A DNA stretch of 64,000 bases, taken from NCBI RefSeq assembly GCF_014695915.1, contig NZ_JACJPF010000098.1, positions 1 through 64,000 on the forward strand. The letters are read 5' to 3'. The notes below the pieces were generated by a model, which ran no database searches, was not told where the DNA came from, and was given only the letters and a program-made list of their open reading frames with translations. Within the stretch, counting starts at the first letter, position 1; every line of letters begins with the position of its first letter. This DNA is from Trichocoleus sp. FACHB-40. GTDB lineage: Bacteria; Cyanobacteriota; Cyanobacteriia; Cyanobacteriales; FACHB-T130. This document shows positions 47,136-57,347 of this stretch, piece after piece. The translations under genes were made by a program, and so were the position numbers.

Positions 47136-48490
47136 AATATCTCAAAAAACGTACTGACGATGATTGGCTAATTGGTGAAGACAGTCGCCAATTTACCAGC
47201 CTAGCCGAACAGTTATTTCTTCAATTAATCCAAGAAAATCAGCCAAAAATATTACTATCAGAACCAGAACCAATAAAATTTATCGCCAGCTTCGTTGCCG
47301 CCGTAGCCGCCGGTTGTCCAGTTTTTATCTGCAATCCCAACTGGGTAAAACAGGAATGGCAACAAGTTCTAGATTTAGTCCAACCAGACATAATTTTAGG
47401 CCAAGATATAGCAACCGACAGACATCAAAGATATTCCTCAATCCCTAATCCCCAATCCCCTGTCCCAAATTCCATCATGATTCCCACAGGTGGTTCATCA
47501 GGCAAGATTAGATTTGCAATTCACACCTGGGAAACATTAATGGCCTCCGTACAAGGTTTTAAAAAATATTTTCAATTAACTCAAGTCAATTCTTTCTGCG
47601 TACTGCCGCTGTATCATGTCAGCGGATTAATGCAATTTATGCGCTCCTTCACCTCTGGAGGAAAATTGGTAATTCGACCATTGAAAGCATTAGAAGCAGG
47701 AGAAAAATGTAACATTGAAGCATCCGAATTTTTTATATCTTTAGTACCAACCCAGCTACAACGTCTCCTACAGAATCCAGAATTAGCTGCCTGGTTATCC
47801 CATTTTCAGACAGTCCTATTGGGAGGCGCACCCGCTTGGCAGGAACTTCTGGAACAGGCGAGACACCAAAACATTCGGCTAGCACCCACCTATGGCATGA
47901 CAGAAACCGCCTCACAGATTGCCACTCTCAAACCAGAAGAATTCCTCAAAGGTAACAACAGCTCTGGTCAAATTTTACCTCATGTTAAAGTAACAATTCG
48001 CAGCCCCAATAACGAAATATTAGACATCAATAATGCAGGAATTATTACCATCCAGACTAATTCCTTAGCACATGGTTACTATCCAGAAACGTTCCCAAAT
48101 AACCATAAGTTCCAAGTAGATGACATAGGCTTCATTGATAAACAAGGTGACATAAACATCATTGGACGTAACAGCAATAAAATCATCACAGGTGGCGAAA
48201 ACGTGTTTCCCTCCGAGATAGAAGCCGCAATTAGAGCCACAGGGTTAGTTGCCGATATTTGCATCATTGGCTTACCAGATTCCCATTGGGGAGAAATCGT
48301 AACAGCAATTTACATCCCCAGTAATCCCGAAATTTCTACTAACACCTTGCAAACCGCAATCGAGAATAAACTTAGTAAATTCAAACGTCCCAAACAGTGG
48401 ATTCCAGTAAAGACCTTACCACGCAATTCTCAAGGCAAAATAAACCTTGAACAACTACAAAAAATAGCTACAACAAACACACCAGCCTAA
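47120..48490 (+). CDS. menE: o-Succinylbenzoate--CoA ligase
   Basis: AMP-forming acyl-CoA ligase (ANL superfamily) that activates OSB. The 456-aa protein has the ATP loop [13 protein letters not shown], the A4-A5 region [16 protein letters not shown], and the ending [21 protein letters not shown] with the lysine region [14 protein letters not shown]. Residues about 107-118 ([12 protein letters not shown]) read as a translated low-complexity repeat. It is convergent with a thioesterase gene, overlapping by 4 bp. Confidence 0.94.
47440..47472. repeat. Low-complexity repeat inside menE
   Basis: CCCTAATCCCCAATCCCCTG is the type found in intergenic spacers such as 34846-34937, here in frame within MenE. 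Confidence 0.6.
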
Positions 48491-48939
48491 ATCCCATCCC
48501 TCTGCGTCCTCTGCGCCTCAGGGGTTCCTTCCTCCTGCTCCCCCCACTCACGCAACCATCTCACAATCTCCGCAGAAAACTCTTTTCTACTTTTACTAAC
48601 CGCATCAATACAAACGTGTCTAGTAATTGCCTTAGCGACTATGTTATCAGCGACAACAAACTGATAACCAACTTCAAATTTCTCGCTACTCAAATACTTA
48701 CACATTAACTTAATAAATATCTCGTCCCCGCAAAACATCGGACGAAAAAAATCTACACTAGCATGAACAATAGGAATAGCAACAGACGAATTACTAAAGA
48801 ACACCTTAAGATTAATACCAGATGCCGCCAAAGACTGCTCATAAGCTTCGTGGCACATTGCTAAAACATTAGCAAAGTAAACAACACCGGCTGCATCAGT
48901 ATCTTGAAACCGAATTGTGCGAGTGTAATTAAATGTCAT
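48487..48939 (-). CDS. 1,4-dihydroxy-2-naphthoyl-CoA thioesterase
   Basis: Hot-dog-fold acyl-CoA hydrolase of 150 aa, which in cyanobacteria releases DHNA from DHNA-CoA before prenylation. The signature [24 protein letters not shown] has the catalytic Asp. Position next to menE supports the assignment. The last 15 or so residues ([14 protein letters not shown]) are encoded by a dispersed repeat (48501-48527) and look added. Confidence 0.88.
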
Positions 48940-48951
48940 TTATCGATTTGA

Positions 48952-51123
48952 TTACCATGTACTAATAATATTTTCTAATTCCTCAACATTTAGACAATCC
49001 ATAGCAAATGCCTTAGAAAGCAGATTTTGAGGAATAAATTCATCATATTTTTGCAATTTTAAAGGTTCTTCAGCAGCAACTAAATCATGCGATGAAATCC
49101 TTTGATTGCCAAAAGAAAGGATTTCATCACAAAGTTCTTGAGATTGGCTTTTACCTAACTTAACTGTTAGATAATAAGGAGCCTTACCTCCTATACGTTT
49201 AATATCCAGTGACTCTCGGCAAAAGAAATTCAAAAACCTTTCCAAAGTGCGGTAGGTGACAGTACCCATCCAAGGAAAAATGCAGCAAGTATTACCTTCT
49301 ATTAAAACTATATTATTTCTTTGCAATCCAGCACTTCTAGCTAGTTCTCGAACTGTATTCAAACGTTTTTTAGCATTATTTTTTAAATAGATATATTGAG
49401 TATCTTCAAAAAGAACCTGTCGCATCCGTTGCAGAACTTTCGTATGAATATTGCTACTGCCACCATACCAAGAAATACTAGACTGGCCCTTAACTTGTTT
49501 TACAAAAACATTTCTTGATTTTAAACAAACATCTATAACTTCCCAACTTCTGCCTGCCAAGGCAAACAAATTACCAACAGGGGGAGCCATAACAATACTG
49601 CCGATTGCCATAGAGTCGTCCCTGACGACATACTCAATAGTGTCTGAGAATACAGCATAAAAATGAAAATTTTTGACAATTTTCTCCCCTGCCATACCAA
49701 TAATTAATTCTCCCTGTCCAGTCTGCTGAATATGCTCAATTTCAATCAAGTGATGCAGCAACTGCCGGAAATCATCTTTGGATATAGCAGCAAAGGGTGG
49801 TAAGGATAAAACTTGCTGAGCAAGAGCCGCGGGTGAGAGTTCACCCATCGCCATCAAAATGCTCATTGTTTGGTGATAAAGAAGGCTTAACGGGTATTTA
49901 ACAGGCTTGATTGGCTCAATCCAACGTTCTTCCAAGTAAAGTTGAATAATAGCTATAGATTGCAACAGTTGCCAGGGAATTTGTTTCGGAAGTGATTCCT
50001 CACCTGATGGCTCATCTTCCGCACAAACAAACCGCATATCTGCTGCACTACCTCGCCTTCCCGAACGTCCCAACCTCTGCAAGAAACTAGACACAGAAAG
50101 AGGTGCTTCTAACTGAATTACCCGCTGTAATTGACCTATATCAATCCCTAATTCAAGGGTGACTGTTGCAGCAGTAACAGATGCGGTTTTTTTATCACGC
50201 ATCGCGTCCTCAGCAGCTTCCCTTAAAGAGGCAGAAATACTGCCATGATGGACGTGATAAATATCTGGTAATCCTTCAGATTCGGCAATTTGTCGTAGAT
50301 TAGCGATAACCGATTCTGTATCAGAGCGATTATTAGCGAAAATTAAACACTTTCGGGATTTGGTATTATCAAAAATATGCTTATAGTAAGGATTAATAAA
50401 TGATTCATCAGCATTATCTGAAATATAAAAATGTTCTAAAGCTAAGTTGACTTTCCGTTGTCCACCATCGATATCAGGAGTAATGACTGGAGTTTCGGTT
50501 CCTGAACGAAGCCAATCTTCAGCTATGGAATAATCGCCAAGGGTCGCAGATAAACCAATCCGACGCGGCGTTTTTTTTACGAATTTTGATAGGCGTGCTA
50601 ACTGGCAAAGAATTTGGCAACCGCGTTCGGAACCCATAAAGGCATGGATTTCATCAATGATGATAAAGCGCAAATCTCCGAATAGACGAACCAGTTCTTT
50701 ATTTTTATTAATTAACAAGCTTTCTAAAGATTCTGGAGTAATTTGCAGAACGCCTTTAGGATCTCTTATTAGCAGTTCCTTACGACTTGAGGAGACATCG
50801 CCGTGCCAGTGCCAAACAGGAATATCGGCTTCTTTTAATATGTCATTTAGACGCTCAAATTGGTCGTTAATTAGCGCTTTAATAGGACTGATATAGAGTG
50901 CGCCGATAGTTATGGATGGATTCTGATGTAGTAAGGTAAGAACTGGCAGAAAAGCAGCTTCTGTTTTTCCCGAAGATGTTCCCGCAGCAAGCAATAGGTG
51001 AACATCTGTGTCAAAAATTACCCGACTAGCTTCTATTTGAACGTGCCTTAATTCCGTCCAATCGTGAGTGTAGATATATTCTTGAATAAATGGCGCTAAC
51101 CTATCAAAAGGCTGTTTACTCAT
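48952..51123 (-). CDS. Lhr-like superfamily 2 helicase
   Basis: A 723-aa ATP-dependent DNA or RNA helicase. Motif I is AAGTSSGKT (46-54), motif II DEIH (157-160), motif III LSATLGD (191-197), and motif VI QRLGRSGRRG (349-358). A winged-helix-type region and a C-terminal beta-rich part follow, as in Lhr-like proteins. The chain is intact. It is last of the minus-strand run DUF815 - coiled coil - DUF2791 - helicase. Its partners (a BrxD-like ATPase and a TerB-C-like protein) recall helicases of BREX and Ter-type systems; this role is inferred from neighbours. It begins 137 bp after the ATPase gene. Confidence 0.9.
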   Translation of the reverse strand: MSKQPFDRLAPFIQEYIYTHDWTELRHVQIEASRVIFDTDVHLLLAAGTSSGKTEAAFLPVLTLLHQNPSITIGALYISPIKALINDQFERLNDILKEADIPVWHWHGDVSSSRKELLIRDPKGVLQITPESLESLLINKNKELVRLFGDLRFIIIDEIHAFMGSERGCQILCQLARLSKFVKKTPRRIGLSATLGDYSIAEDWLRSGTETPVITPDIDGGQRKVNLALEHFYISDNADESFINPYYKHIFDNTKSRKCLIFANNRSDTESVIANLRQIAESEGLPDIYHVHHGSISASLREAAEDAMRDKKTASVTAATVTLELGIDIGQLQRVIQLEAPLSVSSFLQRLGRSGRRGSAADMRFVCAEDEPSGEESLPKQIPWQLLQSIAIIQLYLEERWIEPIKPVKYPLSLLYHQTMSILMAMGELSPAALAQQVLSLPPFAAISKDDFRQLLHHLIEIEHIQQTGQGELIIGMAGEKIVKNFHFYAVFSDTIEYVVRDDSMAIGSIVMAPPVGNLFALAGRSWEVIDVCLKSRNVFVKQVKGQSSISWYGGSSNIHTKVLQRMRQVLFEDTQYIYLKNNAKKRLNTVRELARSAGLQRNNIVLIEGNTCCIFPWMGTVTYRTLERFLNFFCRESLDIKRIGGKAPYYLTVKLGKSQSQELCDEILSFGNQRISSHDLVAAEEPLKLQKYDEFIPQNLLSKAFAMDCLNVEELENIISTW

Positions 51124-51159
51124 AAGCTATATTTGACTTTTAGTTTCTGCTCTCTTGTT

Positions 51160-51250
51160 TCTCTTCACTTCGGGCCATATAGCGAAGAGAGCGCATGGCT
51201 ACGCTAATGCGTCTAAGCGCTAACGTGCAGGCTCCGCCAACGCGGTTCAT
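51160..51250. repeat. Dispersed repeat between ATPase and helicase
   Basis: CTCTTCACTTCGGGCCATATAGCGAAGAG forms a hairpin (arms CTCTTC and GAAGAG), followed by GCGCATGGCTACGCTAATGC and GCAGGCTCCGCCAACGCG, words that occur often in cyanobacterial intergenic repeats. Confidence 0.65.
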
Positions 51251-51260
51251 TCCTCTTAAC

Positions 51261-52583
51261 TCATAAAGTAAATTCTGCAAATTCGTTATCCCCATCCACA
51301 TCTGAATTTTTGCTTGGAGGAGTGGGTTTAAAATTGTCCCCGCGAATCAGTTCATTAAAAGAAATGTCTGGATTTTGTTGCATGATGTTTAAGATACTGA
51401 TGAAATCGCGGACAACTTCGCGGGGTGTCAAAAATTTTTCAGCACCTAAACGATTGACAACCTCTTGCATAAATTCTTGCAATTCGCTGGGTTTAAGAGT
51501 TTTATTATAGTTGTAATGGGCAGCATGAACATCAACCAATCTATACAAAAGTTCCGATATATTTTGGGAAGTTAATGTTTCTAGCTGGATGACTGGTGCT
51601 GAGATATCTTTATGACCGTTTTTAACACGACTGCTTAAACGCGATCGCAAGGCTTCATCACTATACAACCCCCGGCGTTTGTCTTCCACAAATTCTGGCG
51701 TACCACCCAGATAAATCCCTAGATTTTCTGCTCTTCCCTGCATCGTGTCGTTGAACATAGCCAGCAGCTTGTCGTAATTTTTCTGACGGGAAGCTGTATG
51801 AGTAATCTTGTATAAATGTACAGCCTCATCCAGCAAAATTAAAAGTCCTTTGTAACCGATGTCATAAATAAACTTAGCAAATAATTTTAGGTAATCATAC
51901 CATGTTTCATCATCAATAATGACGCGCACACCCAGGGCTGATTTTGCCTCAGTTTTAGTACCAAATTCTCCCCGCAACCACCTCAGTGCAGCTTCTTTTT
52001 TATCATCATCATCCAAGCGATAGCCGCGCCAATAAGCGATGATAACATTGGCAAAGTCAAACCCATGAACTAAGCCTTCTACGTCCTTAACTACTTCCCT
52101 AATTCTCGTTTCTACTAAATCGTCAAAGCCGCTGTCATTGGGACGCATATCGTTATCTTGGGCGACTTGGTTTTGAATCCCATTAATCCAGCCTTCTAAA
52201 ATTGGTGTTAAAGCACCACCTTCAGGACGAATTTTTGTAGAAAAATTCTGCATTAATTCTCGATAAGTTGCTACACCTTTACCGTCAGTTCCTGTTAGCC
52301 TGCGTTCTGGAGATAAGTCAGCATCAGCTACCACAAAACCTTTCTCCATAGCGTAGTTGCGAATCAGTTGCAGCATAAAGCTTTTACCTGAACCGTAGCG
52401 TCCCACTATGAAGCGAAATGCTGCACTACCTTCGCCAATATTATCCAGATCCTGTAAAACAGCTTTAACTTCTTTTTCTCTACCTACAGCAATATATTCC
52501 AGACCAATTCTAGGCACAACTCCTGCACCAACTGAACTGATTAAGGCATTAGATATTCTTTTGGTAATTTTAAGTTTTGTCAT
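51261..52583 (-). CDS. DUF2791 P-loop ATPase (BrxC/BrxD-like)
   Basis: A 440-aa STAND/AAA-like ATPase. Walker A is GRYGSGKS (61-68) and Walker B LLILLDEA (247-254). The typical opening is AVGREKEVKAVLQDLDNI and the hallmark VADADLSPERRLTG. PF10923 proteins are known as BrxD-type components of BREX and as partners of TerB-domain and helicase genes. The ATG at 52583 is preferred; the longer frame from 52655 begins inside a palindromic repeat. It lies 85 bp after the coiled-coil gene and 137 bp before the helicase gene. Confidence 0.9.
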   Translation of the reverse strand: MTKLKITKRISNALISSVGAGVVPRIGLEYIAVGREKEVKAVLQDLDNIGEGSAAFRFIVGRYGSGKSFMLQLIRNYAMEKGFVVADADLSPERRLTGTDGKGVATYRELMQNFSTKIRPEGGALTPILEGWINGIQNQVAQDNDMRPNDSGFDDLVETRIREVVKDVEGLVHGFDFANVIIAYWRGYRLDDDDKKEAALRWLRGEFGTKTEAKSALGVRVIIDDETWYDYLKLFAKFIYDIGYKGLLILLDEAVHLYKITHTASRQKNYDKLLAMFNDTMQGRAENLGIYLGGTPEFVEDKRRGLYSDEALRSRLSSRVKNGHKDISAPVIQLETLTSQNISELLYRLVDVHAAHYNYNKTLKPSELQEFMQEVVNRLGAEKFLTPREVVRDFISILNIMQQNPDISFNELIRGDNFKPTPPSKNSDVDGDNEFAEFTL

Positions 52584-52623
52584 GGATTTAACATGAGTTG
52601 ATAAGTAATTATTTACCATCCTC

Positions 52624-52672
52624 TGTAGAGTGGGCATTGCCCACAATAACACCATTGGAGGACATTGCCTAC
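52624..52672. repeat. Palindromic repeat at the coiled-coil/ATPase junction
   Basis: The perfect palindrome GTGGGCATTGCCCAC is bracketed by TGTAG and CTACA. It overlaps the stop codon of the coiled-coil gene. Confidence 0.7.
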
Positions 52673-53715
52673 AAAATTATATTTTTAACTTTTGTTAAAT
52701 ATTCCTGTGCGATCGCTGGCGGAACCGACACCGATCCAGGCTCTATAATCAGATCACCAATTGTATCCATAGCAAGCTCATTTATACCATCAATTAAGAG
52801 TTGGGGCATTGTGATATTTTCTTCGGCAATTTTTTTTATTGTTCCACCTGGATTATTTTGCTCTAAAATTGCTTTGAGTATTTGAATATCATCATCACTA
52901 AGTCTTGCTTTTAACTCAGCCCATTCTGAAGGTATTTCCTCTAGTTTAGTTTTTGTTTCGCGAAAAGACGTTTTCTGACGCGACTTTTCCTTTGGCTGTT
53001 TTATTTCGTAAATTTGGAACTGTAATTGCCTAAGCTCTAATTGTAAAGATAGCAAAGATTGATTTAGCTCAGCTTTCTGCATCTCAAAAGCCTGAATTTG
53101 AGTTTGCAAGTTTTCGGCTTCTGATTGTAAGGGACGTTTTTGCTTTTTTAAGTTTGTTATCTCCTGCTCTAAGACGCTCTTTTCCTTTTGATTTTCTGTG
53201 AATTGAGCTTGCATTTTGCTGAGATCGGAGCGTAGAGAACTCAAACTTAATTCTGTTTTTTGTTTTTCTGATGTTACAGCCAGCAGCGATTGATTTAGTT
53301 CAGTTTTTTGCGTTTCCATAACTTGAACTTGAGTTTGGAGAATAAAACCTTGATCTTCTAACTGGTGCCTATAGGCTCCTAAATTGGCTATCTCCCGATT
53401 CAGCACATCCCTTTGGTTATGTCTTTCGGTAACTTGGAGATTTAGTTGATTGAGACTGGACTGCAAATAATAAAGATGCTCCTCTAAATCTTGTCTTTCT
53501 CCATCTATAGCTTGAATTTCGTTTAGGAGAAAATTCTTTTGCTTCCTTTGTTTATTTTCTACAACTAAAGTTCCCGCATAAGTAGCAGGTACAGTAATTA
53601 CCCCTGTAAGCAGCGCTCTCCCGAAGTCTCGGTTAGCAATAAGTCCAATAAAAAAGCTTACGCTGAAGGCAACTGACGAGAGTAAAATTCGATTACTTAG
53701 CTTTGTGGATCGCAT
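52669..53715 (-). CDS. Membrane-anchored coiled-coil protein with TerB-C-like C-terminus
   Basis: A 348-aa protein. Two hydrophobic segments (about residues 10-25 and 34-50) form an N-terminal hairpin anchor. Residues about 55-245 are a long coiled coil (heptads with repeated LNQSLL and KQKTEL). The end (about 263-348) reads LSDDDIQILKAILEQNN, then INELAMDTIGDLIIEPGSVSV, a pattern that closely recalls the TerB-C terminal module, where a helix pair precedes INEWAFDxxxEPLIEE-type text. The TerB-N and TerB metal-binding parts are absent. It sits directly upstream of the DUF2791 gene. The domain name is my reading by eye. Confidence 0.75.
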   Translation of the reverse strand: MRSTKLSNRILLSSVAFSVSFFIGLIANRDFGRALLTGVITVPATYAGTLVVENKQRKQKNFLLNEIQAIDGERQDLEEHLYYLQSSLNQLNLQVTERHNQRDVLNREIANLGAYRHQLEDQGFILQTQVQVMETQKTELNQSLLAVTSEKQKTELSLSSLRSDLSKMQAQFTENQKEKSVLEQEITNLKKQKRPLQSEAENLQTQIQAFEMQKAELNQSLLSLQLELRQLQFQIYEIKQPKEKSRQKTSFRETKTKLEEIPSEWAELKARLSDDDIQILKAILEQNNPGGTIKKIAEENITMPQLLIDGINELAMDTIGDLIIEPGSVSVPPAIAQEYLTKVKNIIL

Positions 53716-53762
53716 ATTGCTTGTTGTTGGCTCCAGTCAGCAGTTTCCAACTTTTTACATTA

Positions 53763-55067
53763 TTATGTGTTTACGGTTAAATCGGCTTTGAGAAAGTCAA
53801 TAAATTGTCGTGCTGTGCGCCCAGAACGCCCGTTGTGACGAGTTGCCCACTGGAGGGCGCGATATTCTAAATCTTTCTGGGTGAGGGGAATTTCCGCTTG
53901 GGCGGCAAGATGTCGGATAATGTTTAAATAGGTATTCTGATCGGCTGGTTCAAAGGTTAAAGTAAGACCAAAGCGATCGCTAAACGAAAGTTTTTCCTGC
54001 ACCGTATCCCAAGCATGGATTTCTTCATTGTCTCGCGTGAGCGGGCGATCACCAAAAAATTCTCGAATCAAGTGGCGGCGATTGGAAGTCGCATATACCA
54101 CCACATTTTGCGATCGCGCAGTTAAATTACCCTCCAACACAACTTTAAGCGCTTTGAAAGCGTCGTCATCTTCCTCAAAGGAGAGATCGTCAACAAAAAT
54201 AACGAATTTCTGAGGAACACCCCGCAGCTGCTCCACAATTTCTGACAAATCTCTCAAGTCAGATTTAGCCACTTCCACAAGGCGCAAATTTCCAGTACCC
54301 GACTCATTTAACAACCCCTTCACCAAAGAAGATTTGCCACTGCCACGACTGCCATACAGCAAAACGTGCAAGGCTGGATAACCAGCAAGTAAAAATTTTG
54401 TATTCTTCAGCAAAGCGTCTCGCTGAGACTCGTAGCCGACTAATTCCGTAAGCTTTACAGGATCGGGATGCCTAATTCCCACCAGTTGCCCCGATTGCCA
54501 GCGAAAAGCCCGATACTCAGCAAACAGTCCCGTGCCGTAGTCGTGGTAATGAGTTGCCAGATATTCCAGCGCCTCTGCCCAATTTTCTAAAATTTGGAAT
54601 TTATCCCGGATGGGCAACTCATGAATCGCCCCTACTATCCCATCCTGCTGCTGGTTCCAGGCAACGGGAGCAGCAGGCAGCTTAGCGGCAGCTTGCACCC
54701 ACCTACTCAACTGGTCGCTACTGCAATTGTAGAGGCTCTGCAAGGCTTGTAAATCATGCTGGGCAGCTGCTACCAGAGCTGGAGACAGTAAAGATGCCTG
54801 CTGGACTTGCCTGGTAAAAGGATTATCGGTTCTGAGGATTTGCGTAATCAGGTAGTTTTCCCAGCTTTGATTTTTGGCGGCTAAAGCTTGAAACCAACTA
54901 CCGTAAGCTTGCAGGCAAACCAGCCCATCGGTGTCGGCATCGCATAAGGCTTGCAGCAGATTCAGGAAAGCCGAACCCACTTCACCCGCAAGAACGGATT
55001 TATAGAGTAACAGGGACGCAGCTTGGCGTTGCAGGAATTTGATTGAAGCGATCGCTTGAGTATCCAT
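53763..55067 (-). CDS. DUF815 AAA+ ATPase
   Basis: A 434-aa ATPase (ATG at 55067 next to an upstream TTG). The N-terminal half is helical. Walker A (GSRGSGKS, about residues 239-246) and Walker B (FVIFVDDLSFE) are followed by the sensor YATSNRRHLIREFFGDR, typical of DUF815. Its substrate is unknown. It lies 47 bp upstream of the coiled-coil gene, so it could be first in the same transcript or just an older neighbour. Confidence 0.88.
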   Translation of the reverse strand: MDTQAIASIKFLQRQAASLLLYKSVLAGEVGSAFLNLLQALCDADTDGLVCLQAYGSWFQALAAKNQSWENYLITQILRTDNPFTRQVQQASLLSPALVAAAQHDLQALQSLYNCSSDQLSRWVQAAAKLPAAPVAWNQQQDGIVGAIHELPIRDKFQILENWAEALEYLATHYHDYGTGLFAEYRAFRWQSGQLVGIRHPDPVKLTELVGYESQRDALLKNTKFLLAGYPALHVLLYGSRGSGKSSLVKGLLNESGTGNLRLVEVAKSDLRDLSEIVEQLRGVPQKFVIFVDDLSFEEDDDAFKALKVVLEGNLTARSQNVVVYATSNRRHLIREFFGDRPLTRDNEEIHAWDTVQEKLSFSDRFGLTLTFEPADQNTYLNIIRHLAAQAEIPLTQKDLEYRALQWATRHNGRSGRTARQFIDFLKADLTVNT

Positions 55068-55136
55068 CAATTACCAGAGTGATCTACCGAGAGCTATGGT
55101 AAATTGTCTGCCGACCCTAAAAATAGGTTTGCACTA

Positions 55137-55457
55137 ATGAATCTGGGAATTATCAGCGCGATCGCATACGGCATCTTAGCAATTATTGGCGGCATTATTG
55201 GCTACTCTCAAGCGCAAAGTAAAGTTTCATTAATTTCTGGTATTGTCAGCGGTCTATTACTGATTCTCGGCGGAGTGATGCAATTGCAGGGACAAGCTTG
55301 GGGGCTGATTTTAGCAACCGTTGTCACCGCTGTTCTAGTAATTGTCTTCGCCGTCCGCTTGGCGAAAACTCGCAAGTTTATGCCTGCGGGGTTGATGAGT
55401 GTCTTAGGTTTGGTAACGCTTGCAGTGATGATTCAGCAACTGGTTGTCAGAGTATAG
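55137..55457 (+). CDS. TMEM14-family membrane protein
   Basis: A 106-aa protein of four predicted helices (AIAYGILAIIGGIIGYSQA opening, GLLLILGGVMQ, ILATVVTAVLVIVFAVR, GLVTLAVMIQQ). This is the UPF0136/TMEM14 pattern, related to plastid FAX fatty-acid exporters, so a lipid or small-molecule transport role is possible. The ATG at 55137 is used rather than a TTG at 55104. It is divergent from the DUF815 gene. Confidence 0.85.
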   Translation: MNLGIISAIAYGILAIIGGIIGYSQAQSKVSLISGIVSGLLLILGGVMQLQGQAWGLILATVVTAVLVIVFAVRLAKTRKFMPAGLMSVLGLVTLAVMIQQLVVRV

Positions 55458-55661
55458 CGGCGCTTCTAGCTTTCTGGATCTATCCCAAGCGATCGTGCCT
55501 GCTTTATTGGCACGACCTACAAAATTCACACCCTTCATTCCTAAATCAGCCAAGCCATCAAAAAACTTAACGAATCTGGCAGCATTTCAATTTAGTAGCG
55601 ACGGCAGGGAACACTAACCATAGAGAAGCTTTTGCCAACATACTCCCTCAAAGAGCTACCC

Positions 55662-57347
55662 ATGAGTACCGTCAAAATTCAAGCTACTGAATATCCTGTT
55701 CAGAAAGTATTTAGTAATGATTTCGTTTTTACCATTCCCCTGTACCAGCGTCCCTATGCCTGGACTACTGAGCAAGCTGGAGAATTGCTTCAAGACCTAA
55801 TTGTATCCTTGGGTGACGGTAACGAGCCAATTGATGATATAAATCCCTACTTCCTGGGCAGCATGGTACTAATAAAGGCAGATAAACCAGACGCTCAAGT
55901 TGTTGATGGTCAACAACGTCTGTCAACGCTCACTATAATACTTTCAGCTCTGCGGACGTTAGTACAGCTCCAGTATGCCAATGCCTTAACTAAGTTGCTC
56001 TACGAAGAAGGCAACCCGATCCTTGGCACCCATAACCGTTATCATCTGACCTTGGCTAAGCGAGATGCAGATTTTTTCAAGGAATACATTCAGGATGAAG
56101 GCGGTATTAGCAAGCTGGAATCTTTACACTCAGCTACGCTTTCAGATAGTCGTAAAAACATTAAAGAAAACGCGCTGTTATTCCTGCAAGAGTTAGGGAG
56201 ATTTTCCGAATCTCAGCGGGTTCGGCTCGTGCAATTCATTATTACCAGATGTTTTCTGGTAGTCGTTTCAACACCAGACTTAGAATCTGCATATCGGATA
56301 TTTTCTGTGCTGAACGGTCGGGGTCTAGACCTGTCACTTCCCGATATTTTAAAAGCTGAGATTATCGGGCAAATTCCTGACGATCAAAAGGAAGCATACA
56401 CTTGCAAATGGGAAGATATCCAAGAGAAACTAGGTCGGGAGACGTTTGAAGACCTTTTTTCATACATTCGCATGATTTATCGTAAGGCAAAACTCACTGG
56501 TAGCATCCTCAAGGAATACCGCGAACATATTAAACCTTGGAATAATTCTCAGGAGTTTATCAAGACAACTTTATGTCCTTTAGCTGATGCTTTCTACGAA
56601 ATTAAGAATACAAGCTATGTAAGCGATAAACACGCCGAAAAAGTAAATAAACTGTTTAAGCAGTTAAATGATATTGATAATTCTGACTGGATACCTCCAG
56701 CTATTCTCTATCTCTCTCGTAACCACAGTCATCCTGAGCAATTGGTGCAATTCTTTACTGAATTAGAACGTCTTGCGGCGGGTTTGATGATTAAACGGGC
56801 AAATATTAACGAACGGATTGAACGCTATCGTCGCTTGCTAACTGCCATTGAGCATGAGGAAGATTTGTATACACCCGATTCACCACTCCAAATTACATCA
56901 GAAGAAAAGAATGATATTCTCAAAATGTTGGATGGCGACCTCTACCTGACTCAAAAAATTCGTTTATTTGTATTGCTGCGTCTAGATGCGGCTCTGTCAG
57001 AAGGTGAAGCATCATACAACTTCTCCACCATTACTGTCGAGCATATATTACCGCAAAATCCTGCCCATGATAGTCTGTGGGTGAAGTGCTTTACAAGCTT
57101 GAAAGAACGCGAAAAATATGTGCATCGTTTAGGAAATCTGGCTTTACTCTCTTGTTGTAAAAACAGCGAAGCGCAAAACTATGACTTTGATGTGAAAAAG
57201 CAAAAGTATTTCACCACTAAAAAAGGTGTTTCTCCTTTTGCGCTAACAACTCAAGTGCTAATGGAACAGGAATGGACACCCGAAGTCATTGAGGCGCGGC
57301 AGAAAAATCTGATCGGCGTTCTCAAGAAAGTTTGGCGCTTAGATTAG
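55662..57347 (+). CDS. DUF262/DUF1524 protein (GmrSD-like nuclease)
   Basis: A 561-aa protein, ATG at 55662 (a TTG frame starts earlier). The DUF262 half has YQRPYAW (28-34) and DGQQRLSTLTI (82 on), a ParB-like NTPase pattern. The DUF1524 half has EHILPQNP (460-467) and HRLGNLALLS (488 on), an HNH-type nuclease pattern. GmrSD and BrxU of this kind cleave modified phage DNA using nucleotide hydrolysis. It lies about 600 bp from, and divergent to, the ATPase/helicase run. Confidence 0.9.
   Translation: MSTVKIQATEYPVQKVFSNDFVFTIPLYQRPYAWTTEQAGELLQDLIVSLGDGNEPIDDINPYFLGSMVLIKADKPDAQVVDGQQRLSTLTIILSALRTLVQLQYANALTKLLYEEGNPILGTHNRYHLTLAKRDADFFKEYIQDEGGISKLESLHSATLSDSRKNIKENALLFLQELGRFSESQRVRLVQFIITRCFLVVVSTPDLESAYRIFSVLNGRGLDLSLPDILKAEIIGQIPDDQKEAYTCKWEDIQEKLGRETFEDLFSYIRMIYRKAKLTGSILKEYREHIKPWNNSQEFIKTTLCPLADAFYEIKNTSYVSDKHAEKVNKLFKQLNDIDNSDWIPPAILYLSRNHSHPEQLVQFFTELERLAAGLMIKRANINERIERYRRLLTAIEHEEDLYTPDSPLQITSEEKNDILKMLDGDLYLTQKIRLFVLLRLDAALSEGEASYNFSTITVEHILPQNPAHDSLWVKCFTSLKEREKYVHRLGNLALLSCCKNSEAQNYDFDVKKQKYFTTKKGVSPFALTTQVLMEQEWTPEVIEARQKNLIGVLKKVWRLD

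What the first reader, a model, noticed from the sequence alone, without database searches (positions are those of the whole stretch)
48952..55067. Candidate defence/DNA-stress system: AAA+ ATPase, membrane coiled-coil with TerB-C-like end, BrxD-like ATPase, Lhr-like helicase
Seen: four intact minus-strand genes in a row with gaps of 47, 85 and 137 bp (48952-55067). Established: DUF2791 (PF10923) ATPases pair with Lhr-type helicases in BREX type 2 and with TerB-N/TerB-C proteins in Ter-type systems. Inferred: here the TerB partner is replaced by a shortened protein with two membrane helices, a 190-residue coiled coil and only the TerB-C-like module, so the complex would be membrane-tethered. 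No methyltransferase, PglZ or BrxC gene is present, so it is not BREX. I do not know this arrangement as a described system.
Basis: partly seen in the sequence, partly recalled or inferred. Interest (0 to 1): 0.85.

Follow-up and report, generated by a model that had tools for sequence, protein, structure and literature searches.

The report
Cyanobacterial membrane-anchored Shango-like system
These genes look like a cyanobacterial version of the known anti-phage system Shango in which most of the TerB protein is replaced by a membrane-anchored rod, and in this lineage the genes are inherited like ordinary chromosomal genes rather than like a mobile defence cassette.

Summary
In detail: four intact minus-strand genes at 48952-55067, and the 348-aa protein ends in a real TerB_C domain. 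The claim that the arrangement is undescribed does not hold: the ATPase and helicase match SngB and SngC of Shango, a tested anti-phage system. New is the first component. SngA (TerB_N, sometimes TerB, TerB_C) is replaced by two membrane helices, a rod of about 200 residues and TerB_C alone. Of 386 phylum genomes, 39 have cyanobacterial-type SngB (one broken); all 39 have the rod protein, 37 have SngC, often unlinked, and none has TerB_N. SngB, rod and SngC identities track DUF815 (r 0.84-0.90), with purifying selection. SngB homologues under 60% identity match 692 plasmid records; a full-length rod matches none. Three rods without TerB_C occur only in genomes lacking SngB and SngC. Against a strict trio, seven genomes keep rod and TerB_C without SngB/SngC. 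DUF815 is a general cyanobacterial gene and frequent neighbour, not a proven component. Best reading: a vertically inherited, membrane-tethered Shango derivative; defence or host-DNA maintenance remains open.

The parts
53763..55067 (-). DUF815 AAA+ ATPase gene (434 aa from ATG 55067); conserved upstream neighbour, membership in the complex unproven
   Evidence: Pfam DUF815 317.9 bits; Walker A at residue 240 and FVDD at 292 of the 435-aa ORF; within 500 bp upstream of the rod gene in 30 of 38 SngB genomes, window included
52669..53715 (-). Rod protein (348 aa), stand-in for SngA: two predicted membrane helices + long coiled-coil helix + TerB_C
   Evidence: 59 family members in the fetched loci, the window's included
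53560..53712 (-). Predicted membrane hairpin, residues 2-52 of the rod protein
   Evidence: hydropathy peaks 10-28 and 34-52; helix 2-28 then a helix from 31
52672..52941 (-). TerB_C region, residues 259-348; winged-helix-like model, acidic
   Evidence: Pfam 35.2 bits; model pLDDT 93, pTM 0.84; best VIA-align Z 6.3; net charge -9
51261..52583 (-). SngB: BrxD-like AAA+ ATPase (440 aa from the likely start)
   Evidence: Pfam BrxC_BrxD 566 bits; PADLOC SngB 616 against BrxD 193 bits; Walker A and LILLDE present
48952..51123 (-). SngC: SF2 helicase, 723 aa, Lhr/BrxHI-like
   Evidence: PADLOC SngC 827 against BrxHI 439 bits, residues 1-719; motifs GTSSGKT, DEIH, SAT, QRLGRSGR present
51149..51250 (-). 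Interspersed repeat in the sngB-sngC gap, not part of the system
   Evidence: 10 further partial matches in the own genome

Best explanation
The run is a vertically inherited, membrane-tethered derivative of the Shango system. SngB, a BrxD-like AAA+ ATPase of the ORC/Cdc6 kind, loads or activates SngC, an Lhr/BrxHI-like SF2 helicase, on DNA. In canonical Shango the TerB protein SngA would govern the pair. Here only its last domain, TerB_C, remains, at the tip of a helical rod of about 30 nm anchored in a membrane by two helices, so the ATPase-helicase pair would work at, or be held inactive at, the membrane. Shown here: gene identities, predicted architecture, recurrence, co-occurrence of the three genes, purifying selection. 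Inferred: contact of TerB_C with SngB or SngC, helicase loading, membrane location, and what DNA is acted on. I think it most likely that it still acts on abnormal or incoming DNA, as Shango presumably does, but from a fixed chromosomal position; host-DNA maintenance is nearly as likely.
For: Gene identity: SngB 616 and SngC 827 bits, far above the BREX models. TerB_C over cut-off and alignable with canonical SngA ends from Bacillota and plasmids. Co-occurrence in 386 genomes: the 42 with SngC (E up to 1e-100) all lie among the 46 with SngB (E below 1e-90), and all 46 have a TerB_C match. All 39 cyanobacterial-type SngB genomes have the rod protein, and so do 7 of 7 further genomes whose fetched SngB locus lacks it. 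Linkage is often lost (SngC within 500 bp of SngB in 10 of 38, rod in 33 of 38) while co-presence is kept. TerB_N 0 of 39 (control 3 of 3). TerB_C is missing in 3 of 10 rods from SngB-less genomes and 0 of 39 from SngB genomes (Fisher p 0.0065, not corrected for kinship). Identity of SngB, rod and SngC tracks DUF815 identity (r 0.885, 0.904, 0.843; n 28, 28, 21). dN/dS 0.05-0.26 in the pairs tried. SngB homologues, all under 60% identity, match 692 plasmid records, 542 of them predicted conjugative; a rod protein has no full-length plasmid match. Helicase loading by BrxD is suggested in PMC12839542, section 24.
Against: Seven genomes keep a rod with TerB_C without SngB or SngC, with dN/dS much like genomes that have them, so the rod may have a job of its own, perhaps with DUF815. 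One genome (G334) has SngB and rod but no SngC at the threshold used. No direct evidence of contact, membrane insertion or DNA activity. The separation of cyanobacterial from canonical SngB is weakly supported at its base (86/33). The winged-helix likeness of TerB_C is below the tool's trust level (Z 6.3). DUF815, used as the yardstick of descent, is linked to SngB and rod.
Confidence: 0.66

Rival explanations
1. The cyanobacterial trio is no longer a defence system but a housekeeping machine: a membrane-held helicase loader for repair or segregation of damaged chromosomal DNA, for example under light stress. (Compatible with the tethered architecture of the best explanation; differs in the target.)
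For: In family f6, 32 of 42 genomes carry SngB, one of them broken, mostly downstream of DUF815 and the rod. SngB is more conserved than DUF815 among 28 f6 genomes (mean identity 0.84 against 0.76). Components are dispersed yet co-kept. No full-length rod on plasmids; SngB not matched in phages.
Against: Close homology to a system with measured anti-phage activity (PMC10250203); seven of nine g10 genomes lack SngB and SngC, so it is dispensable there; a GmrSD-type restriction gene lies next door in the window.
Confidence: 0.4
2. An ordinary Shango defence system with a diverged SngA, membrane tethering being incidental.
For: PADLOC SngA, SngB and SngC models all hit in order; the three genes are adjacent in the window.
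Against: The SngA hit covers only profile 331-527 of 528; TerB_N absent in 39 of 39 genomes; the same membrane-rod form recurs across several families; loci are often dispersed and co-vary with DUF815.
Confidence: 0.25
3. DUF815 + rod protein is the primary unit (an AAA+ ATPase with a membrane rod), and SngB/SngC are optional partners that dock through TerB_C.
For: The rod lies next to DUF815 on the same strand in all 10 SngB-less rod genomes and in 33 of 39 SngB genomes; TerB_C was lost from the rod in 3 SngB-less genomes while DUF815-rod stayed.
Against: DUF815 is present in 139 of 386 genomes, 90 without the rod; of 20 further DUF815 loci fetched, four of them from SngB genomes whose rod is elsewhere, 2 hold the rod; in 6 of 39 SngB genomes the rod is not next to DUF815.
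Confidence: 0.3
4. A type 2 BREX remnant.
For: BrxD and BrxHI models match (193 and 439 bits).
Against: The Sng models score about 423 and 388 bits higher; no PglZ and no second PF10923 gene in the genome; the two BrxD rows fall far outside.
Confidence: 0.02

Closest known systems
Shango (SngABC): Millman 2022 (recalled, not held) and Johnson 2023 (PMC10250203, passages read)
   Same: SngB ATPase and SngC helicase over full length; TerB_C end of SngA; gene order A-B-C in the window
   Different: The SngA counterpart lacks TerB_N and TerB and is a predicted membrane rod; genes often dispersed; co-vary with a chromosomal neighbour; no full-length rod on plasmids; DUF815 upstream
Type 2 BREX BrxD-BrxHI dyad (PMC12839542, section 24 read, other passages seen)
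   Same: Homologous ATPase-helicase pair; helicase-loader reasoning
   Different: No PglZ and no second BrxC/BrxD-family gene in the genome; lower model scores; separate branch in the tree
Ter-linked DNA-processing systems with TerB_N/TerB_C proteins (Anantharaman 2012, recalled, not held)
   Same: TerB_C domain with an ATPase and a helicase
   Different: No TerB_N here; predicted membrane anchor and rod instead

Membership tests
Shango (SngABC) | SngC-type SF2 helicase | tested here: met
   PADLOC SngC 827 bits, residues 1-719 of 723; motifs present
Shango (SngABC) | SngB-type ATPase | tested here: met
   PADLOC SngB 616 bits; Walker motifs present
Shango (SngABC) | SngA with TerB_N and TerB_C (sometimes TerB) | tested here: not met
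   TerB_C only; TerB_N 0 of 39 genomes, control 3 of 3. Four canonical SngA proteins (L020, L022, L090, L092) have TerB_N and TerB_C, two of them also TerB
Shango (SngABC) | Three genes in one compact operon | tested here: inconclusive
   Adjacent in the window; SngC within 500 bp of SngB in 10 of 38 genomes, window included
Shango (SngABC) | Anti-phage activity | not testable with these tools
   Known only for canonical Shango (PMC10250203)
Shango (SngABC) | Location on mobile elements or in defence hotspots (common, not strictly defining) | tested here: not met
   No full-length rod match on plasmids, no SngB match in phages, recurrent chromosomal neighbourhood. A GmrSD-type gene is nevertheless next door
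BREX type 2 | PglZ | tested here: not met
   0 matches in own genome; the control rings in 2 of 14 genomes
BREX type 2 | BrxC in addition to BrxD | tested here: not met
   One PF10923 gene in own genome
BREX type 2 | PglX methyltransferase | not tested
   Not searched
TerB_C family (PF15615) | Profile match over curated cut-off | tested here: met
   35.2 bits against 26.3; 47.9 bits in the genome search
Winged-helix fold (TerB_C) | Clear structural match | tested here: inconclusive
   Best VIA-align Z 6.3; no Foldseek E under 0.001

The most novel reading that the evidence does not exclude
A phage-defence system has been domesticated in cyanobacteria: SngB and SngC, with the SngA TerB_C module on a membrane rod, have become a vertically inherited, dispersed, slowly evolving DNA-handling machine working at a membrane and no longer (or not mainly) used against phage.
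Probability: 0.35. Interest if true: 0.8.

Novelty: new variant of a known kind. Interest (0 to 1): 0.58.

Why it matters
How Shango works was listed as unknown in a 2026 review (PMC12926258, passages read). A natural form in which the SngA counterpart is cut down to TerB_C suggests that TerB_C is the part that deals with SngB and SngC, and that TerB_N and TerB are replaceable input modules. That is directly testable. A defence system that became part of the inherited chromosome of a cyanobacterial family would be a clear case of domestication. Defence surveys that rely on gene clustering would be expected to miss the dispersed copies (inference).

Tried and rejected
BREX was rejected. DUF815 as an obligate component was not accepted: 139 of 386 genomes have it, 90 of them without the rod. 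A chance TerB_C match was rejected: a relative's rod scores 119.8 bits. Decay of a canonical SngA in this one genome was rejected: 59 rod-family ORFs were found in the fetched loci (the window's included, and at least one pair, L008 and L056, has identical SngB and looks like one species); by eye, 56 of the 59 have the TerB_C end and 3 do not. 'No rod in the Leptolyngbya-type genomes' was rejected: 7 of 7 carry one elsewhere. An effect of SngB loss on selection was looked for and not clearly seen: for TerB_C, eight SngB-bearing pairs give dN/dS 0.10-0.25; of seven SngB-less pairs, five give 0.13-0.16 and two young ones 0.25 and 0.48; three mixed pairs with G284 or G385 give 0.28-0.31 and two others 0.09-0.10, at most a hint of relaxation. 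Sequence search of TerB_C in solved structures gave nothing convincing (best E 0.088); phmmer found no good solved relative for SngB (best E 0.0054) or DUF815 (best E 0.031). VIA-align's 50 listed rows for TerB_C are, by my reading of the titles, nearly all winged-helix or other helix-turn-helix proteins, but Z is 6.3 at most. No Rfam match in 40-60 kb; promoter and terminator scans were at the shuffled level.

In print: a cyanobacterial Shango with this architecture was sought, DUF815 and Ter terms. The Shango listings were complete (10, 12, 2 and 35 papers); two searches were capped (20 of 2,632 and 15 of 1,493 shown). Only PMC10250203, PMC10952713, PMC12926258 and PMC12278908 (passages) and PMC12839542 (passages, outline, section 24) were opened; for all others I saw only the listing. 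Most subscription papers are not held.

Limits of counts: the 386 genomes are one drawn sample; thresholds were E below 1e-90 (SngB), 1e-100 (SngC), 0.001 (TerB_C, TerB_N), 1e-20 (DUF815). Of the 55 TerB_C genomes one (G149) is under the curated cut-off and its match covers only profile 4-64. One search covers 38 of 39 cyanobacterial-type SngB genomes; G385, whose sngB and sngC are broken, was left out there and described. One search left out the window and G308 as distant rows (28 of 30 used). Plasmid hits were listed for 40 of 692 records, many annotated with a TerB N-terminal gene; the rest were not looked at and may include BrxD. The plasmid search for the rod used the L082 protein, not the window's. 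In one search the label 'canon' was given by locus; TerB_N was confirmed by profile or annotation for L020, L021, L090, L092, L097, L170, L171, L172 and L175, not for L091, L095, L096 and L173. Fisher values ignore kinship.
Full report
What is there. The window is part of a 342-kb contig of a 6.38-Mb genome held as G000. Its nearest relatives by SngB sequence are cyanobacteria. Four intact genes lie on the minus strand at 48952-55067. From 5' to 3' they are a DUF815 AAA+ ATPase, a 348-aa protein, a BrxD-like ATPase and an SF2 helicase. The ATPase and helicase score highest against the PADLOC models SngB (616 bits; BrxD 193) and SngC (827; BrxHI 439). The 348-aa protein hits the SngA model only at its end (65.7 bits, profile 331-527 of 528). 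SngABC is Shango, a three-gene TerB/ATPase/helicase system that protected P. aeruginosa PAO1 against several phages, mostly 10- to 100-fold on plates (PMC10250203, passages read). The statements about TerB_C, the membrane architecture and 'not BREX' stand.

The unusual part. Four canonical SngA proteins examined carry TerB_N and TerB_C, two of them with TerB between (L020, L022, L090, L092). The window protein has neither TerB_N nor TerB. It has two N-terminal hydrophobic helices, one predicted helix from residue 31 to 239, a low-confidence linker and then TerB_C (mean pLDDT 86). The helix would be about 30 nm long at 0.15 nm per residue (my arithmetic). TerB_C alone folds with pLDDT 93 and pTM 0.84. 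Its best structural neighbours are mostly winged-helix or other helix-turn-helix proteins by title, but only at Z 6.3 or less, with no Foldseek E under 0.001. All 20 TerB_C segments examined are acidic, net charge -4 to -15, which argues for protein binding rather than DNA binding (inference). The domain aligns with canonical SngA ends, including two from Paenibacillus plasmids.

Recurrence. I searched 386 genomes of the phylum. SngB at E below 1e-90 occurs in 46, of which 39 are of the cyanobacterial type (60% identity or more) and 7 lie at 41-43%. SngC at E up to 1e-100 occurs in 42, all of them among the 46. The four without it are G334, G385 (both genes broken), G038 and G369. In G369 a piece of SngC is present at a contig edge; in G038 SngB lies at a contig edge. 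A TerB_C match occurs in 55, 54 over the cut-off, including all 46. A profile of the membrane end of the rod rings strongly (67-127 bits) in 49 genomes: all 39 of the cyanobacterial type and 10 without SngB. It rings weakly (31-47 bits) in 7 more. TerB_N is not found in any of the 39, while the same search finds it in 3 of 3 genomes that have it. Seven further cyanobacterial genomes whose fetched SngB locus holds no rod gene all carry a rod protein elsewhere.

Linkage. In 38 of the 39 genomes (G385 left out), the rod is within 500 bp upstream of SngB in 33, DUF815 is within 500 bp upstream of the rod in 30, and SngC is within 500 bp of SngB in 10. In G062 and G334 the rod sits with DUF815 away from SngB; in G060 the rod is elsewhere. 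SngC is elsewhere in many genomes, for example G068, G125, G191 and G251. Co-presence that survives loss of linkage is the strongest sign that rod, SngB and SngC work together.

Inheritance. In family f6, 32 of 42 genomes have SngB, one of them broken. Pairwise identities of SngB, rod and SngC follow those of DUF815 with r 0.885 (28 genomes), 0.904 (28) and 0.843 (21, seven of them with unlinked SngC); none of 2000 permutations reached these values. DUF815 stands in for a species marker here, and for SngB and rod it is a linked one. dN/dS in the close pairs tried is 0.05-0.09 for SngB, 0.07-0.16 for SngC and 0.06-0.26 for the rod. SngB homologues, all under 60% identity to the window's, match 692 plasmid records, 542 predicted conjugative (40 listed, many beside a gene annotated TerB N-terminal). 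A rod protein has three partial plasmid matches and none covering 80%. SngB has no phage match. In a tree of 70 SngB proteins the 55 cyanobacterial rows form one group, weakly supported at the base (86/33), with canonical rows and BrxD outside.

TerB_C follows SngB and SngC, in part. Three rod proteins end before TerB_C (G005, G233, G149); all three genomes lack SngB and SngC, and the rod still sits beside DUF815. That is 3 of 10 against 0 of 39, p 0.0065 without correction for kinship. On the other side, seven SngB-less genomes keep TerB_C, and their rods are under purifying selection much like the others. Either the losses are recent or the rod has a further partner. DUF815 is the obvious candidate: it is next to the rod in all 10 SngB-less rod genomes. 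But DUF815 is a general gene (139 of 386 genomes), and 2 of 20 further DUF815 loci hold the rod.

Mechanism. BrxD has been classed as an ORC/Cdc6-type AAA+ ATPase that possibly loads BrxHI, an SF2 helicase with an Lhr-like end, on DNA (PMC12839542, section 24 read). SngC, BrxHI, DruE and DpdJ were reported as a potentially distinct helicase clade tied to immunity (PMC12278908, passage read). By homology SngB would load or switch SngC, and TerB_C would be the contact between the pair and its controller. In this lineage the controller is a membrane rod. The homology and predicted architecture are shown here; loading, contact and membrane location are inferred. Whether the target is incoming phage DNA or damaged host DNA cannot be told from sequence. 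The co-inheritance and slow evolution make a host function nearly as likely as defence.

Verdict. A new variant of a known kind. It is not filed as Shango proper, because the TerB_N part of SngA was tested for and not found and the operon is often dispersed; most likely it works like Shango with the front of SngA swapped for a membrane anchor.

Noticed in passing
55632-57347 (+): GmrSD-type gene (GmrSD_N 123 bits, GmrSD_C 93 bits; PADLOC Orf5 721 bits) just upstream of the run, on the opposite strand: a candidate restriction gene.
   Followed up: no
55104-55457 (+): Tmemb_14 gene divergent from DUF815 (88.9 bits). A short gene (u106) of about the same size sits at the same place in many relatives; that the two are homologous was not tested.
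   Followed up: partly
48487-48939 (-): A thioesterase-family gene (4HBT_2) follows sngC by 12 bp and might share its transcript; genes that look like menaquinone/phylloquinone synthesis lie beyond it (recognised from the translations, not tested).
   Followed up: no
51149-51250: The 137-bp gap between sngB and sngC holds an interspersed repeat with 10 further partial matches in the genome.
   Followed up: partly
L141 (G385): sngB and sngC are broken into fragments while DUF815 and the rod gene are intact.
   Followed up: partly
L174 5010-7577: A Microchaete diplosiphon plasmid (and two Tolypothrix plasmids) encodes an 855-aa protein annotated 'chromosome segregation ATPase-like' whose start resembles the rod (28.7% identity), near an annotated integrase and a DEAD/DEAH helicase gene.
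   Followed up: no
G203, G157, G195, G135, G133, G033, G045: Weak matches to the membrane end of the rod (31-47 bits) in genomes without a TerB_C match or a strong SngB match: possibly a wider family of membrane rods.
   Followed up: no
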